Origin: a bacterium
Lineage (GTDB): Bacteria; SZUA-182; DTGQ01
Direction of reading: 5' to 3'
NCBI GenBank assembly: GCA_023512255.1
Contig: JAILZY010000058.1
Span: 1 to 22,930 of the forward strand
DNA: 22,930 nt
Part shown: positions 13,820 through 20,883 of the stretch, piece after piece
Numbering within the stretch: the stretch's first letter is position 1
How the letters are laid out: the number at the start of each line of letters is the position of its first letter
Notes under the pieces: model-generated
The model's database searches: none
What the model saw: the letters and a program-made list of their open reading frames with translations, nothing else
Told to the model about the DNA's origin: nothing
Made by a program: the position numbers and the translations under genes

Positions 13820-14148
13820 GCTGAGTGGAGAGGCGTAGAAATGAAGTATGGCATGGATATTGCAAACTTCTACCGTCGATAAGGGTGTTTTTTGTTAGAA
13901 AAATATAATTGTAAGGGATTCTACTTATCCAAAAAATTCAAACCTCAGTTAATAAAAAGCAGAGTTTGGGAGGTGATGTCATGATACATTACAAAAAAAT
14001 TATAAAGGAGGTGACATTTTCGGAGGGTTAGTTTCATATTTACTTTAGTTATCAAAAAGTTTAGTAATTTATTAGTTATTAAGTATAGAGTTAAAGAGAG
14101 AGCTTTAAGAGATTGATGAGCTTATAATGGAAGAAAGGAAGGTTTATT
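13820..14148. other. Gap with two orphan ribosome-binding sites and mini-ORFs
   Basis: After the small gene there are a 13-codon frame at 13841-13882 (MKYGMDIANFYRR) and a 16-codon frame at 13981-14031 (MIHYKKIIKEVTFSEG) that starts after GGGAGGTGATGTC. Inside the second is AAAGGAGGTGA (14004-14014), an almost perfect complement to the 16S tail, followed by no usable gene. The region could be a decayed gene or a leader for the Tyr/Pro-rich gene at 14149. I assign no function. Confidence 0.3.
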
Positions 14149-14574
14149 ATGAATAAAGGATGGCTTTTGAGAGTGATAATGGCGTGTGTAGCGGCTACAG
14201 TTCTGTTAGTAGGTGTCAGTGCTCATGCCCAATGGCTGCCAGTATCATGGTATTATACCAATCCGCTTTATTATCCCAGCTATGGATACACGAACCCTAT
14301 TTCCGGGGCTTCAACCCTTTTAGGGTATGCACCGTTTAGCCCGTTCTATGATCCGGCTTATATTACTTCTTTGGCTTCATTGGCTACGCCTATTTTAATC
14401 CCATCATATGGGTATCCTTATTCTCCGTATGTTACCCCCTTCCCGTATCTGACTACTCCGGGCGCGGTATCACCGTATGTAAGCTTTAGCTATCCCTACT
14501 ACACTTATGGCAGCCCGACCTTCTACTCAACCTGGTCTCTGCTGAATGGCGCTACTTACGGAGCTTTGCTCTAA
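14149..14574 (+). CDS. Secreted Tyr/Pro-rich low-complexity protein
   Basis: The 141-residue product has a clear signal peptide (MNKGWLLRVIMACVAATVLLVGVSAHA, cleavage likely after AHA). The mature part of about 114 residues is strongly biased: about 21 Tyr and 17 Pro, arranged as loose SYGYPYSPY / PSYGYTNP / SFSYPYYTYGSP runs, with almost no charged residues. I recognise no family. Such compositions occur in adhesive, matrix and surface-layer-associated proteins, so an extracellular role is likely but unproven. AAGGAAGG gives a ribosome site before the ATG. It lies downstream of the large repeat protein in the same direction, and the two secreted products may work together (inference). Confidence 0.75.
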   Translation: MNKGWLLRVIMACVAATVLLVGVSAHAQWLPVSWYYTNPLYYPSYGYTNPISGASTLLGYAPFSPFYDPAYITSLASLATPILIPSYGYPYSPYVTPFPYLTTPGAVSPYVSFSYPYYTYGSPTFYSTWSLLNGATYGALL

Positions 14575-14936: not shown

Positions 14937-16280
14937 TCAAGAATTTTCTGCTTGTTCCCCTCCTTGATTTCCCTGAACCTGGAGATTTAACTCCTCTCGG
15001 CTCAGCCCCATAGTTTTCATATGTCGGTAAAAGGTGGCCTTATGAATTCCTAGGAGGCGAGCCGCCCGGGTAATATTGCCTTCGCTCTTTCGAAAGGCAT
15101 TAATTATGGCCTCTCTGGTTAGCTCTTTTGATTTAAGTGAGCTTGTGGCTATATCGGCCGCAGCCGGGGTGATCTCAAGCGGAATGATATTCTCTTTCCT
15201 TGGCAGCAGGTCATATGGCGGCAGGCTCTTAGTTTCGGAAAAAGAAACAGGGGTAAGGAGATTTGAATTAGGGGTTCCCCAATGCTCATCCCCTAAGCGG
15301 GGAGAGTCGGCCTTGAAGGGGAGTAGGGCTACCTGTTGCCGAAGATCCTCAGATGATGGGTAATGAGGGACAATAATGGCCGGTTTAGTAGCTTTGCGGT
15401 TTTCTGGAAAATAAAGATTCCACTCTCCGGCGGCAAAGTAATCTCTCTCCTGTACCCATTCGTTCAGAGAATTGTGGCCGATGACCATGCCACGGCTTTC
15501 GACAAAAATTCGCTCCAACACATTGCGCAGCTCTCGTACATTACCAGGCCAGTGGTAGTCCTCCAATACCTTAAGAGCCTCTGGAGTTAGGCGAAGGACG
15601 TTGCGGCCGTAGCGATGATTTAAGATTTTTAGAAAATGATTTACCAGCAGCGGTATATCTCCCGGCCTTTCCCGAAGGGGAGGCACATGGATCCGAAACA
15701 CTGCCAGTCGGTGATAAAGATCGGCCCGAAAGCGGCGCATCGCTACCGCCTGCTCTAGGGAGACATTGGTTGCCGCAATAATCCGCACATCTACTGGATA
15801 TTCCTGTTCTCCTCCGACCCGTTCAAATTTGCCATCCTCTAGCACTCGCAGTATTTTGGCCTGGGTCTTGAGTGGCATATCGCCGATTTCATCGAGGAAG
15901 AGAGTGCCTTTATCAGCTCGCTCAAATCGGCCCTTGTGGGTTTTAACCGCGCCGGTAAAGGAGCCCCGCTCATGCCCGAAAAGTTCTGACTCAAACAGCT
16001 CTTCAGACAGGGCGGAGCAGTTTACGGCTACAAAGGGCATACTGTGTCGGGCACTTCGCTCATGGAGAGCCCTGGCCACAAGCTCCTTGCCTGTGCCTGT
16101 TTCTCCAGTAATCACCACTGGTGCTTCAGCAGGACCGTAGATATTAATCTTGTGGAATACCCTTCGGATTGATTCGCTCTGGCCGACGATGCCGAGAAAA
16201 TTCCCCCCCTCTGGAAGCTGCTCCTGATCATCTGGAGAGGAAAGTTGTGCCCCTGGCTGATCTTGTTCAAAATTGTTCAT
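14937..16280 (-). CDS. Sigma-54-dependent transcriptional activator without sensor domain
   Basis: The 447-residue protein is a bacterial enhancer-binding protein that uses ATP hydrolysis to open sigma-54 promoters. The AAA+ domain starts almost at the N terminus (about 28-270): Walker A GETGTGKE (59-66, K65), the sigma-54-contacting loop as GSFTGA (106-111; GAFTGA is usual, with the key Phe-Thr kept), Walker [10 protein letters not shown] (126-134) and arginine-finger region [10 protein letters not shown]. No receiver, PAS or GAF domain precedes it. A long Pro/Ser-rich linker (about 280-385) separates it from the C-terminal Fis-type helix-turn-helix ([26 protein letters not shown], 401-426). 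It lies 24 bases after clpB and is probably cotranscribed; its own ribosome site is weak. It is the obvious candidate to act at the hsp20 sigma-54 promoter. Confidence 0.93.
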
Positions 16281-16304
16281 GATTTTTCTATATGTTTTTT
16301 GCGG

Positions 16305-18944
16305 TTAGCCAACAGCCTGCCCTTCACTAACCTGCGGATTTTCATACTCAAGTGCCAGTTGTCCATCAGCAAGTGTAACCTTGATCTTGGCACCATCGAG
16401 AATTTCTCCTCGGATTAAGGCACGGCTGAGGCGAGTTTCAAGCTCACGGGTCATGAATCGTCTGAGTGGTCGAGCTCCGTAGACAGGATCAAAGCCTCTG
16501 CGGGCGATAAACTCTCGGGCTGGCTCGGTCAGCTCAAGAGTCAATCGTCTATTTTTGAGTCGTTTGCGCAGGTCATCGGCCAAAAGATCAACAATCTTTT
16601 TGATTTCTTCAAAGGTCAGCGGCTTGAAGAGAATAATCTCATCCAGCCGGTTTAAGAATTCAGGCCGAAAATGTCGCCGCAGTTCTCTCATCACTGCCTC
16701 TCGAGCCGATTCCTGAATCTCTCCCTGAGGGCTGATTCCCTCGATAAGGTATCCCGAGCCGATATTGCTGGTCATTATGATCACCGTGTTTTTGAAATCA
16801 ACGGTATGACCCTGGGAGTCGGTTACCCGGCCATCATCGAGTATTTGAAGCAGGATATTGAACACATCCTGGTGGGCTTTTTCAATCTCATCGAAAAGAA
16901 CCACAGAATATGGTTTCCTCCGTACCGCCTCGGTTAGCTGGCCTCCTTCTTCATAGCCGACGTAGCCTGGCGGAGCGCCGATTAGCCGGGATACGGTGTG
17001 CTTTTCCATATACTCTGACATATCAATACGGATCATGTTTTCTTCACTGTCAAAAAGGGCCTCGGCCAGGGTCCTGGCTAGTTCTGTTTTCCCGACCCCA
17101 GTGGGGCCGAGAAAGATAAATGAGCCGATTGGCCGCCGAGGATCCTTGATTCCTGACCTTGCCCGGATAATGGCATCGCATACCAGTTGCACCGCTTCAT
17201 CCTGGCCTATTACCCTGGAGTGGAGAATCCGATCGAGGTTTAAGAGCTTTTCCTTCTCACTTTCAACCAGCCGAGTTACGGGAATCCCTGTCCAGCGGGA
17301 GACGATTTCAGCTATTTCTTCCTCGGTTACCTCCTCCCGCAAGAGCTTCCCTTGCCCCTGTTTCTGGGCTAGCCTGCTTTCTTCTGCTTTCAACCTGCGC
17401 TCAAGCTCAGGGAGTTTCCCATGTTTTAATTCCGCGGCCAGGTTGAGGTCATAGGCCCTTTCAGCCCGGCTGATTTCCTGGCGCAGATGCTCTATCTCCT
17501 CCCGTAGAGCCTGGACTTTGCGGATAGCCTGTTTTTCTGCCTCCCACTGGGCTCTCATGGAATCCCCCTTGGCTTTCAGCTCAGCCAGTTCTTTTCGCAG
17601 GGTTTGGAGTCGCTCCTGGCTGGCAGTATCTTTCTCTTTTTTAAGAGCTGCCTCCTCGATCTCAAGTTGCATGATCCTTCGGGTTACCTCATCGAGCTCA
17701 GCAGGCATAGAGTCCATTTCCGTGCGGATCATGGCACAAGCCTCATCCACGAGGTCGATGGCTTTATCGGGCAGGAATCGATCGGTGATATAGCGGCTTG
17801 AGAGTACAGCCGCAGCTACCAGGGCGTTATCCTGAATTTTGACTCCATGATGCACTTCAAATCGCTCCCGCAGCCCTCGGAGGATAGAGATCGTGTCTTC
17901 GACTGTTGGCTGATCAATCATAACTGGCTGGAAACGGCGCTCTAAGGCTGCATCCTTTTCGATATACTTTCGGTATTCATCCAGGGTAGTGGCGCCGATG
18001 CAGTGCAGCTCTCCGCGGGCCAGCATGGGCTTTAGCATATTACCAGCATCTATGGCCCCTTCGGCTTTGCCTGCTCCGACAATGGTGTGCAGCTCATCGA
18101 TAAATAGCAGGATTTGTCCTTCACTTTGCTTGATTTCCTGAAGAACCGCTTTCAGTCGCTCTTCAAATTCACCACGATATTTGGCTCCAGCCAACAGGGC
18201 TCCCATATCGAGAGAAAAAATAGATTTATTTTTTAATCCTTCTGGTACATCGCCGCGCACGATCCGATGAGCCAGTCCCTCGACGATGGCGGTTTTCCCT
18301 ACTCCTGGCTCGCCGATCAAAACGGGATTGTTTTTTGTTTTCCGGGATAGAATGCGTATAACCCGGCGAATCTCAGAATCACGCCCGATCACCGGATCAA
18401 GTTTTCCGCTTTGCGCCTCTCGCACCAGATCGCGGCCGTAGCGCTCCAGGGCCTCATAGGTTGCCTCAGGGTTGGCGCTGGCTACTCGCTGGTGTCCTCT
18501 GACCGAGGTCAGAGCCTGCAAGAATCTCTCTCTGGTTATATTGAACTGCCTGAGCGCCCGGCCAGCCGCACTTTTAATCCCCTCATCAATCATGGCTAAC
18601 ATGATGTGCTCTACAGAAACATATTCATCTTTCAGCCGCTTGGCTTCATCCTCAGCCTTGACTAGAATCTGACTCAAGGCCGGGGTAATATAGATTTGGC
18701 CTGGCTGGTGGCCAGGGCCAGTTACGCTTGGCCGCCTTTGTAAGCTGCGTTCAATCTCGGTGCAGAGCGGCTCGATGGGCACATCCATTTTGTTCAACAA
18801 GCGGGGGACTAGCCCCTCTGGCTGCTCCAGCAGAGCCAAGAGCAGGTGCTCACTGTCAATTTCCGAATGACCGTAGCGCAAGGCTTTAGTTTGGGCCTGC
18901 TGAAGTGCTTCCTGCGATTTTTGTGTTAAGCGGTTCATATCCAT
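16305..18944 (-). CDS. clpB: ATP-dependent disaggregase chaperone ClpB
   Basis: ClpB (Hsp104 family) pulls polypeptides out of aggregates together with DnaK and small heat-shock proteins. The 879-residue protein has the double-Clp N domain (about 4-145), NBD1 with Walker A GEPGVGKT (211-218) and Walker B FIDEL (281-285), a coiled-coil M domain at about 405-530 that distinguishes ClpB from ClpA/C, NBD2 with Walker A GPTGVGKT (613-620) and Walker B VLFDEIE (682-688), and the C-terminal ClpB_D2-small domain. The substrate-pore motif YRGE (256-259) and GYVGYEEGG (660-668) are present. The ATG at 18944 has GGGAG about 11 bases upstream. It lies between the hsp20 pair and the sigma-54 activator, all on the minus strand. 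I see no CIRCE element upstream. Confidence 0.97.
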
Positions 18945-19017
18945 AAATATCTTAGCTCCCTGTTAACCACTTAAAAAATAATAAGGATTTTCACCTCGCC
19001 ATACTTAATTGGTCCTT

Positions 19018-19117
19018 TCGCTAAGTGCGTAACACAAAGTGCGCAGCGGATCAATTACGCTATCAATCGTAGCGGCAGGCCTTATGCCCACCAACAGCTT
19101 GCGCACTTTATTAGCGA
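19018..19117. repeat. 100-bp nested inverted repeat upstream of clpB
   Basis: The outer arms are TCGCTAA (19018-19024) and TTAGCGA (19111-19117); the inner arms AAAGTGCGCA (19036-19045) and TGCGCACTTT (19100-19109) are a perfect 10 bp. GTGCG also recurs as a direct repeat inside the left arm. The block is more GC-rich than its surroundings. No target duplication is seen. It could be a miniature element or a structured clpB leader. Confidence 0.6.
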
Positions 19118-19160
19118 GAGAACCACTTATTGATTCCATAGAGAATATGATATACTATAA

Positions 19161-19190
19161 TCTTTTGTATTGCAATCTCTTGTATTGCAA
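19161..19190. repeat. 15-bp tandem duplication
   Basis: TCTTTTGTATTGCAA is followed directly by TCTCTTGTATTGCAA, differing at one base. Confidence 0.8.
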
Positions 19191-19265
19191 AGAGAATTAT
19201 ATAGTAGCGGGTCAGGAGAATTATTATCCAAAAGATGAATAGTTATTACCATAAAATAAACGTAT

Positions 19266-19296
19266 GGCCAGGCCCTCCTTCGGGAGAGACCTGGCC
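19266..19296 (-). terminator. Hairpin terminator after the hsp20 pair
   Basis: GGCCAGG (19266-19272) and CCTGGCC (19290-19296) enclose CTCC-TTCG-GGAG, a stable UUCG-type tetraloop stem. On the minus strand it is followed by a moderate T-rich tail (ACGTTTATTTTATGG). It lies about 90 bases beyond the second hsp20 stop codon. Confidence 0.65.
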
Positions 19297-19382
19297 GTGT
19301 CGGGTGGCAAGACCTTTTTCGAATATGTTTTGACGATAAAAAATATATTTTGGTGATAAAATTCCCCTTGAACAATAGCACC

Positions 19383-19787
19383 TTAGGCTACATTGACCGT
19401 GATCCGCTTCGGTTTGGCCTTCTCCACCTTTGGCAGATGAATGACCAAGGTACCGTTCTTTAGGTCGGCACTGATTTTTTCCTGATCCACTATCTCGCTG
19501 AGCTGGAATTGGCGGAAAAAATTCAACAGGGTATATTCGGTATAAACCGGATTGCCTGGGGCTAAATGCTGGGTCTTTCCCTGAATGGTCAAGACATTAT
19601 TGTCAACCCTAATATCGGCATTTTCCTTACTTACACCAGGCAGATCAGCAATAACTACAAGTCCTTCTTGGGTTTCGTAAATATCGACCGGAGGAGTCAG
19701 ATAACGCTCTTCCTGGCGGGTTTCCTCACGGGTGGATGCCTCAGTTGTTTTTACAGTAGTAGTTACGGGAATAGTTCTTTCAGCCAT
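19383..19787 (-). CDS. Small heat-shock protein (Hsp20/alpha-crystallin), second of pair
   Basis: The 134-residue protein has a polar, Thr/Glu-rich N-terminal arm (1-30) in place of the hydrophobic arm of its neighbour, then the alpha-crystallin domain from PPVDIYETQEGLVVIADLPGV (32-52) to the family signature NGTLVIHLPK (about 110-119). The C-terminal ITV is the I-x-I/V motif that docks onto a neighbouring dimer during oligomer assembly. Small Hsps hold unfolded proteins for later release by DnaK and ClpB. The ribosome site GGGGAGG precedes the ATG. It follows the first hsp20 gene after 21 bases and shares its tail KAKPKxITVNV, so the two are probably a diverged tandem duplication and one transcript. 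Confidence 0.95.
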   Translation of the reverse strand: MAERTIPVTTTVKTTEASTREETRQEERYLTPPVDIYETQEGLVVIADLPGVSKENADIRVDNNVLTIQGKTQHLAPGNPVYTEYTLLNFFRQFQLSEIVDQEKISADLKNGTLVIHLPKVEKAKPKRITVNVA

Positions 19788-19808
19788 TTTTCTTTCCTCC
19801 CCTCATAA

Positions 19809-20273
19809 TTATCCTACATTAACAGTAATCTGTTTTGGTTTGGCCTTTTCAGACTTGGGCAGTGTCACCAAGAGCAAACCGTTTTGGTAATCAGCTTTGA
19901 CTTTATCCGCATCCACCTCAGATGGGAGCTCTATAGTGCGGGTAAATTTGCCACAAGCCCGCTCGCTGCGGTGATAAGCCTCAGGCTTAACCTCAATGCC
20001 GGCTCCGGCTACGAGCTTTTCTCCAGAAATCGTTAGGCAGTTATTAGCCAGGGACAGGTCAATGGTTTTTGGGTTAACTCCTGGGGCCAGTGCCTCGACA
20101 TAGTAGTTGTCCTTATCCTCGTTGAGATTAATCATTGGATATTGGCGGGCTGATCGTCCTGGAAGGAACGATACCCGCGAGAAGGGAAAGGTCCACTGTT
20201 CAATGGCGTTGAAAATTCGGTCAAACTCGCGGCGCAAAGACTCCATTTCACGGAAAGGATCTCGGTAAGCCAT
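19809..20273 (-). CDS. Small heat-shock protein (Hsp20/alpha-crystallin), first of pair
   Basis: The 154-residue protein has the classical N-terminal arm MAYRDPFREMESLRREFDRIF with aromatic residues (WTFPFSRVSF), then the alpha-crystallin domain (about 45-142), including PMINLNEDKDNYYVEALAPGV and the signature NGLLLVTLPK, and the C-terminal ITV assembly motif. It is an ATP-independent holdase that would feed ClpB/DnaK. The ribosome site AAAGGAGG is strong. It leads a minus-strand unit with the second hsp20. A near-consensus sigma-54 promoter lies about 110-130 bases upstream (20383-20400), which is unusual for a heat-shock gene and is the likely route of control. Confidence 0.95.
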   Translation of the reverse strand: MAYRDPFREMESLRREFDRIFNAIEQWTFPFSRVSFLPGRSARQYPMINLNEDKDNYYVEALAPGVNPKTIDLSLANNCLTISGEKLVAGAGIEVKPEAYHRSERACGKFTRTIELPSEVDADKVKADYQNGLLLVTLPKSEKAKPKQITVNVG

Positions 20274-20382
20274 AAGTATACCTCCTTTAAGTGTGAGAGT
20301 GGTTAAAAATTTACTCCTTGCCGAAATAGTCTAAAAATTAATTATTAGGAAATATTTATATTTCCTTGACAACTTATAGCCA

Positions 20383-20400
20383 ATGCATATATTGTGCCAA
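20383..20400 (-). promoter_or_regulatory. Sigma-54 (-24/-12) promoter for the hsp20 pair
   Basis: Read on the minus strand the site is TTGGCACAATATATGCAT. Aligned to the consensus TGGCACG-N4-TTGCW it matches TGGCAC fully, keeps the invariant GG and GC with exactly 10 bases between them, and differs only at the G after CAC and the first T of TTGC. The transcript would start near 20373, giving a 5' leader of about 100 bases before the first hsp20. A sigma-54 activator is encoded in the same cluster. Confidence 0.75.
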
Positions 20401-20506
20401 GCTATGGTAAAAAATTTTTTATATAAAAATCAAGATCTTAACTCTGCTGTCTCCCCTGCTCTCTCCTCAGCTTAAAATTCATGAGAGCCATGTTTCACCC
20501 CTGCAC

Positions 20507-20867: not shown

Positions 20868-20883
20868 TGGCACTGAGTTTGCC
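20868..20883 (+). promoter_or_regulatory. Sigma-54 (-24/-12) promoter for glnA
   Basis: The site reads TGGCACTGAGTTTGCC: TGGCAC at 20868-20873 and TTGC at 20879-20882, with the invariant GG and GC correctly 10 bases apart. It deviates only at the base after CAC and the final W. Transcription would begin near 20894. glnA starts at 21077, and the 108-bp family B element occupies most of the leader between them. glnA is a classical sigma-54 target in many bacteria. Confidence 0.75.

What the first reader, a model, noticed from the sequence alone, without database searches (positions are those of the whole stretch)
14937..20400. A sigma-54-controlled heat-shock module: hsp20-hsp20-clpB plus its own enhancer-binding protein
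Seen: a near-consensus -24/-12 site (20383-20400, minus) with the exact GG-N10-GC spacing lies upstream of two small heat-shock genes. Further along the same strand come clpB and, 24 bases later, a sigma-54 activator. Known: small Hsps and ClpB cooperate in rescuing aggregated protein; heat-shock control is usually by sigma-32, HrcA/CIRCE or HspR, with only isolated sigma-54 cases (the HsfA/lonD case in Myxococcus). Inference: the activator and its targets form one portable stress circuit in which the activator, cotranscribed with clpB, drives the holdase genes. I know of no described system with this exact set.
Basis: partly seen in the sequence, partly recalled or inferred. Interest (0 to 1): 0.78.

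Follow-up and report, generated by a model that had tools for sequence, protein, structure and literature searches.

The report
Sigma-54 switch for small chaperones
In a small family of uncultured bacteria, the genes for small heat-shock chaperones carry a rare type of promoter plus a private enhancer sequence, and the likely activator gene sits next to the gene for the partner chaperone ClpB; this is a dedicated switch for handling protein aggregates, separate from the organism's ordinary heat-shock control.

Summary
The genes are as described: hsp20A-hsp20B-clpB-activator on the minus strand, with an exact GG-N10-GC site at 20399-20384. That site alone would not convince, because the window has three matches of similar quality. 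Conservation settles it. The same site (TGGCA[C/T]N4TATGCA) lies 88-125 nt before the ATG of four hsp20 units in two species, two of them unlinked to this locus. A good sigma-70 -10 is seen only in the window.

Searched genome-wide, this inverted repeat occurs only upstream of hsp20 pairs, or of clpB, in genomes that have the activator. Enhancer plus -24/-12 is found at exactly the four hsp20 promoters in nine genomes. An IHF-like site sits at one register in three of the four.

The activator has a sigma-54 AAA+ domain and a Fis-type HTH but no receiver. It follows clpB in all four genomes of its family and is absent elsewhere in the phylum. rpoN is present. HrcA/CIRCE sits at groESL and hrcA instead.

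Corrections: clpB-activator probably has its own sigma-70 promoter; 'portable' is unsupported; the signal is unknown. Sigma-54 control of other heat-shock genes is already known, so this is a new variant.

The parts
14937..16280 (-). sigma-54 enhancer-binding protein (447 aa): about 30-residue N terminus, AAA+ domain (GSFTGA loop, Walker A GETGTGKE, Walker B LFLDEI), family-specific conserved linker (about 275-308), Fis-type HTH (389-422); no receiver or other sensor domain
   Evidence: orthologs at 78/69/68% identity in three relatives, each after clpB
16305..18944 (-). clpB, ATP-dependent disaggregase (879 aa), 24 nt before the activator
   Evidence: TIGR03346, 1375.6 bits against cut-off 1232.1
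19383..19787 (-). hsp20B, second small heat-shock protein (134 aa)
   Evidence: PF00011
19809..20273 (-). hsp20A, first small heat-shock protein (154 aa)
   Evidence: PF00011
20384..20399 (-). -24/-12 (sigma-54) promoter TGGCACAATATATGCA of hsp20AB
   Evidence: same element at G001:C55, G001:C17 and G000:C35 hsp20 genes
20428..20440 (-). IHF-like site TAAGATCTTGATT (0 mismatches to YAANNNNTTGATW), 41 nt upstream of the -24 element
   Evidence: same register with 1 mismatch in two of the three other promoters, absent at G000:C35
20502..20533 (-). putative upstream activating sequence: inverted repeat CGTCGC-N15-GCGACGG (20533-20506), half-site GCGACGGTGCA (20512-20502)
19147..19175 (-). sigma-70-type promoter candidate of clpB-activator (TTGCAA-N17-TATCAT), in a block conserved in G001 (TTGCAA-N17-TATTAT)
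19266..19296 (-). stable hairpin after hsp20B (GGCCAGGTCTCTCCC/GGAGGGCCTGGCC), possible partial terminator with weak U-tract
   Evidence: z = -3.16 for the surrounding 101 nt

Best explanation
This is a dedicated sigma-54 regulon for the aggregate-handling chaperones. The receiver-less enhancer-binding protein encoded after clpB binds GCGACG-type half-sites about 100 nt upstream of the hsp20 promoters. With DNA bending at an IHF-like site, it remodels sigma-54 RNA polymerase on TGGCAY-N4-TATGCA promoters. It does so at hsp20AB next door and at other, unlinked hsp20 loci (G000:C35; the second hsp20 pair in G001). clpB and the activator are most likely made from a separate sigma-70-type promoter, so activator level or activity sets holdase (Hsp20) supply to match the ClpB disaggregase. 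Shown by sequence: gene order, conserved -24/-12, conserved enhancer, rpoN, co-occurrence of activator and enhancer. Inferred: that this activator is the protein that binds the enhancer; that IHF binds; that clpB-activator uses the sigma-70-type promoter. Unknown: the inducing signal. The activator has no sensor domain, so either its abundance is regulated or another protein controls it in trans.
For: A -24/-12 element of the same form precedes four hsp20 units in two genomes, 88-125 nt from the ATG; two (G001:C17, G000:C35) are unlinked to the window locus. A good sigma-70 -10 (TATAAG, 5 of 6) is seen only in the window; elsewhere the best is 3-4 of 6. The inverted repeat CGTCGC-N8..20-GCGACGG has four places in five genomes: hsp20AB in G000 and G001, the second hsp20 pair in G001, and upstream of clpB-activator in G002. 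Enhancer half-site plus -24/-12 hits only the four hsp20 promoters in nine genomes, with 0 for the reversed-pattern control. The half-site alone has ten places in 18.5 Mb, five of them here; of the other five, at least one is in a tuf gene, with a second copy of identical sequence, and none has a good -24/-12 nearby. The activator follows clpB in all four genomes that have it and is absent from the other five of the phylum; those five have no enhancer-plus-promoter match. rpoN present. groESL and hrcA carry CIRCE; this module does not.
Against: No expression or binding data. The link between activator and enhancer rests on co-occurrence and neighbourhood; the genome encodes at least 28 matches to sigma-54 activators. 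In G002 the enhancer-like repeat lies 363 nt upstream of clpB with no -24/-12 between, and about 600 nt separate clpB from the activator there. G000:C35 has a different enhancer layout and no IHF-like site. In the window a sigma-70-like -35/-10 overlaps the site. The half-site pattern was refined on the loci it is counted on. The G003 contig ends 81 nt upstream of clpB, so it could not be tested.
Confidence: 0.78

Rival explanations
1. The hsp20 genes are sigma-54-dependent, but another of the genome's many enhancer-binding proteins drives them; the activator next to clpB serves something else.
For: At least 28 sigma-54-activator matches in the genome. In G002 and G003 the activator is kept although the hsp20 pair was not found there.
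Against: The enhancer occurs only in genomes that have this activator, and in G002 lies upstream of clpB-activator itself. No other gene with enhancer plus -24/-12 was found.
Confidence: 0.13
2. hsp20AB is an ordinary sigma-70 gene; the -24/-12 match is a coincidence within TTGGCA-N16-TATAAG.
For: In the window, TTGGCA and TATAAG each match 5 of 6 at 16-nt spacing.
Against: The -10 is not kept in the other three promoters, whereas GG-N10-GC and TATGCA are identical in all four; enhancer and IHF-like site are in the right places.
Confidence: 0.05
3. One polycistronic operon hsp20A-hsp20B-clpB-activator transcribed only from the sigma-54 promoter, with positive autoregulation of the activator.
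For: Same strand and order in G000 and G001; in G002 an enhancer-like repeat sits upstream of clpB-activator.
Against: 438-nt gap with a stable hairpin after hsp20B; conserved sigma-70-type promoter before clpB; no -24/-12 near clpB. Partial read-through is not excluded.
Confidence: 0.2
4. The GCGACG repeat serves the divergent sigma-54-type glnA promoter (NtrC-like control, GGTGCA half-site), not hsp20.
For: glnA is divergent and has a conserved -24/-12-like site (20868-20883 +; G001 L112 5029-5014); the half-site contains GGTGCA.
Against: The same element sits upstream of hsp20 genes in G001:C17 and G000:C35 and of clpB in G002, none of them seen next to glnA in the stretches read.
Confidence: 0.04

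Closest known systems
Psp (phage-shock) response: PspF-sigma54 (E. coli; PMC6003685, PMC3791423)
   Same: Stress regulon run by an enhancer-binding protein without receiver or N-terminal sensor, encoded beside the genes it serves
   Different: Targets are cytosolic holdases and disaggregase, not membrane-stress proteins; no pspA nearby; below the PspF model cut-off (294.9 against 443.55 bits); by alignment offset the residue at PspF's W56 is H/F/R/Q in the four orthologs
HsfBA-lonD of Myxococcus xanthus (PMC9109919 citing Ueki and Inouye 2002)
   Same: An NtrC-like activator directly controls a heat-shock gene
   Different: HsfA is a phosphorylated response regulator with kinase HsfB; the target is lonD; here there is no receiver and the targets are hsp20 genes
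E. coli ibpB sigma-54 promoter (stated in PMC4370416)
   Same: A small heat-shock gene reported as transcribed by sigma-54
   Different: There sigma-32 transcribes ibpAB as well, and I know of no dedicated neighbouring activator
Sigma-54-linked heat-shock genes in Bacteroidota, Planctomycetota and Chlamydia (PMC12316311, PMC8762339)
   Same: Genome-wide promoter predictions put IbpA-type genes and COG0542 under sigma-54; chlamydial hrcA-grpE has tandem sigma66-sigma54 promoters
   Different: No dedicated activator or enhancer with a clpB neighbour is described in the passages read; the Chlamydia case works through the two-component AtoSC
HrcA/CIRCE
   Same: Present in this genome, at core chaperone genes
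   Different: CIRCE sits only at groESL and hrcA-grpE; none in the window

Membership tests
Sigma-54-dependent promoter | GG-N10-GC (-24/-12) with near-consensus flanks | tested here: met
   20399-20384, and at three further hsp20 units
Sigma-54-dependent promoter | rpoN in the genome | tested here: met
   Sigma54_DBD, E 3.3e-60, 495-aa open frame
Sigma-54-dependent promoter | conserved upstream activating sequence | tested here: met
Sigma-54-dependent promoter | transcript start about 12 nt after the -12 GC; dependence on RpoN | not testable with these tools
   no expression data
Bacterial enhancer-binding protein (sigma-54 activator) | AAA+ domain with intact GxFTGA loop and Walker motifs | tested here: met
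   [20 protein letters not shown] invariant in four orthologs
Bacterial enhancer-binding protein (sigma-54 activator) | C-terminal DNA-binding HTH | tested here: met
   PF02954 at 389-422
Psp system (PspF) | score above the curated PspF model cut-off | tested here: not met
   TIGR02974 294.9 against 443.55 bits
Psp system (PspF) | pspA as neighbour or target | tested here: inconclusive
   no PspA-like ORF recognised by eye among the window ORFs or at enhancer-bearing loci; no profile search for PspA was run
HsfA-type two-component activator | N-terminal receiver domain | tested here: not met
   AAA+ starts at residue 31; no receiver match
HrcA/CIRCE regulon | CIRCE upstream of the gene | tested here: not met
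   0 matches in the window; two exact CIRCEs elsewhere, at groESL and hrcA
Sigma-32 (RpoH) regulon | sigma-32 promoter and rpoH gene | not tested

The most novel reading that the evidence does not exclude
The sensor-less activator is controlled by the chaperones it is encoded with: free ClpB or Hsp20 holds it inactive through its family-specific conserved linker, and protein aggregates titrate them away. It would be a sigma-54 counterpart of the DnaK-sigma32 feedback loop, sensing aggregates rather than heat as such.
Probability: 0.17. Interest if true: 0.78.

Novelty: new variant of a known kind. Interest (0 to 1): 0.55.

Why it matters
Bacterial heat-shock control is usually described as sigma-32, HrcA/CIRCE or HspR. 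Here groESL and hrcA-grpE keep CIRCE, while the aggregate-handling holdases are split off to a private sigma-54 regulon whose likely activator travels with the disaggregase gene. Sigma-54 promoters need an ATP-driven activator and can be silent until switched on, so this would give a tight on/off response to aggregation. It supplies a concrete enhancer motif and promoter form that can be tested and looked for in other lineages.

Tried and rejected
(1) Named-genome scan with the activator returned only generic sigma-54 activators; none of those loci carries a ClpB or Hsp20 match. (2) The 10-nt inverted arms upstream of clpB (19036-19045/19100-19109) looked like an enhancer, but they lie in a stretch repeated upstream of hsp20 in G000:C15 and missing in G001: a dispersed repeat, rejected. 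(3) A sigma-54 promoter for clpB: best score 8.4, inside that repeat, not conserved. (4) AlphaFold model of the activator from four sequences: mean pLDDT 39, not used. (6) A strong sigma-54 score upstream of hsp20 in G001:C22 lies in the preceding coding sequence at -275 and has no enhancer: treated as chance. (7) The Desulfovibrio sigma-54 regulome paper mentions no hsp20 or clpB, and heat shock only in its reference list.
Full report
Observation. The minus strand from 20273 to 14937 encodes two small heat-shock proteins, ClpB and a sigma-54 activator. clpB and the activator are 24 nt apart. The site at 20399-20384 is TGGCACAATATATGCA with exact GG-N10-GC spacing. By itself it is weak evidence: with up to two mismatches the window holds 20 such matches against 8.8 expected, and three of them have one mismatch.

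Genome context. The window is a contig of a 3.83-Mb genome with rpoN. The phylum has nine genomes in the held set. Four, all of one family, have the activator; the three orthologs are 78, 69 and 68% identical to it. In every one it follows clpB: gap 24 nt in G000, about 15-24 nt in G001 depending on start codon, about 600 nt in G002 and 23 nt in G003. The hsp20 pair precedes clpB only in G000 and G001. G002 has no pair there, and the G003 contig ends 81 nt upstream of clpB.

Promoter conservation. In G001 the orthologous hsp20A has TGGCATTGCCTATGCA, at the same distance from the ATG as in the window. A general sigma-54 weight matrix (an approximation written from memory of the published consensus) was then run over the hsp20 genes in these genomes. 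It found the same element, TGGCACACCGTATGCA, before a second, unlinked hsp20 pair in G001 (C17), and TGGCACAAGATATGCA before a single hsp20 in G000 (C35). These two were not used to define the site. Four hsp20 genes in genomes without the activator score at most 5.5, against 12.8-15.4 here. In the window the site also reads as a sigma-70 promoter (TTGGCA-N16-TATAAG), but that -10 is not kept in the other three promoters while the sigma-54 bases are.

Enhancer. Aligning the G000 and G001 upstream regions showed a conserved inverted repeat about 100 nt upstream of the -24. As CGTCGC-N8..20-GCGACGG it has four places in five genomes: the two hsp20AB promoters it came from, the unlinked hsp20 pair of G001, and upstream of clpB-activator in G002. 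The reversed control pattern gives comparable counts (0 to 9 per genome), so the evidence is where the hits fall, not their number. The half-site GCGACGKYGCA, refined on these loci, occurs ten times in 18.5 Mb; five are at this regulon. The other five have no good -24/-12 nearby; one was read and lies in a tuf gene, and a second copy has identical surrounding sequence. Half-site plus -24/-12 within 45-102 nt hits exactly the four hsp20 promoters in nine genomes, with no control hits. A post hoc binomial estimate of co-location is below 1e-9 even without the orthologous copy; it is only indicative because the motif was refined on these loci. Three of the four promoters have an IHF-like site at the same register, 41 nt upstream of the -24 element, one of them perfect. 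Whether IHF is encoded was not tested.

Transcription units. clpB is 438 nt after hsp20B. Between them are a stable hairpin (19296-19266; z = -3.16 for the surrounding 101 nt) with a weak U-tract, and a block conserved in G001 with TTGCAA-N17-TAT[C/T]AT. No credible -24/-12 lies before clpB. So clpB-activator probably has its own sigma-70-type promoter, and the activator acts on hsp20AB and on unlinked hsp20 genes in trans; some read-through is possible.

The activator. AAA+ begins at residue 31. The GSFTGA loop and Walker motifs are invariant, and a Fis-type HTH closes the protein. There is no receiver or other sensor domain. A conserved linker after the AAA+ lid (RDYFxAGxWxLYxxENxKAxKPAIIxP) has no match among the other activators fetched. 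The structure model was too poor to use.

Separate heat-shock control. Two exact CIRCE elements exist in the genome, at groESL and at hrcA followed by a grpE-like gene, and none is in the window. The hsp20 regulon is therefore distinct from the HrcA regulon. rpoH was not searched.

Mechanism. Best reading: the activator binds GCGACG half-sites upstream of hsp20 promoters and, with DNA bending, opens sigma-54 polymerase there. Shown: genes, sites, conservation, co-occurrence. Inferred: that this activator is the binder. Unknown: the signal. With no sensor domain, control must be by abundance or by a partner in trans. PspF is the model for the latter, but its W56 docking residue (position assigned by alignment offset) is not conserved here, so a different partner or contact would be needed.

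Known relatives. Sigma-54 or NtrC-type control of heat-shock genes is not new: lonD by HsfA in Myxococcus (PMC9109919), ibpB in E. coli (PMC4370416), hrcA-grpE in Chlamydia (PMC8762339), and predictions for Bacteroidota and Planctomycetota including IbpA and COG0542 (PMC12316311). The Desulfovibrio regulome text mentions no hsp20 or clpB. I found no description of a receiver-less activator paired with clpB and a private enhancer on hsp20 genes, but the library lacks most subscription papers. Verdict: a real, specific regulon and a new variant of a known kind.

Noticed in passing
20868-20883 (+), upstream of glnA 21077: A -24/-12-like site (TGGCACTGAGTTTGCC) upstream of glnA, in a conserved block in G001 (TGGCATCAAGCTTGCC, L112 5029-5014), so the hsp20A-glnA intergenic region may hold two divergent sigma-54 promoters.
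   Followed up: partly
13849-13864 (+), ORF 14149-14574: The best sigma-54 site of the window (TGGCATGGATATTGCA), identical in G001 within a conserved leader, lies 285 nt before a conserved Tyr/Pro-rich, probably exported 141-aa protein convergent with the activator; no GCGACG enhancer.
   Followed up: partly
L207 1444-1459 (G000:C80:6443-6458): A site of the same TGGCAYN4TATGCA form precedes another low-complexity, probably exported protein (165 aa), hinting at a sigma-54-controlled group of such proteins.
   Followed up: no
about 18995-19125: Dispersed repeat (MITE-like) before clpB, also upstream of hsp20 in G000:C15 (L163), absent from the G001 clpB upstream region.
   Followed up: partly
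20366-20393 (+): Strong sigma-70-like promoter TTGACA-N16-TATATT on the plus strand overlapping the hsp20 -24/-12 site, pointing towards glnA about 680 nt away.
   Followed up: no
L113 8006-8033 (G002:C97:23005-23032): In G002 the enhancer repeat is present upstream of clpB without a -24/-12 site or hsp20 genes: either a relic of a lost hsp20 operon or autoregulation.
   Followed up: partly
L112 5404-5429 (G001): Perfect 11-nt inverted repeat TCGATCCCGGC/GCCGGGATCGA between enhancer and promoter of hsp20A in G001 only; role unknown.
   Followed up: no
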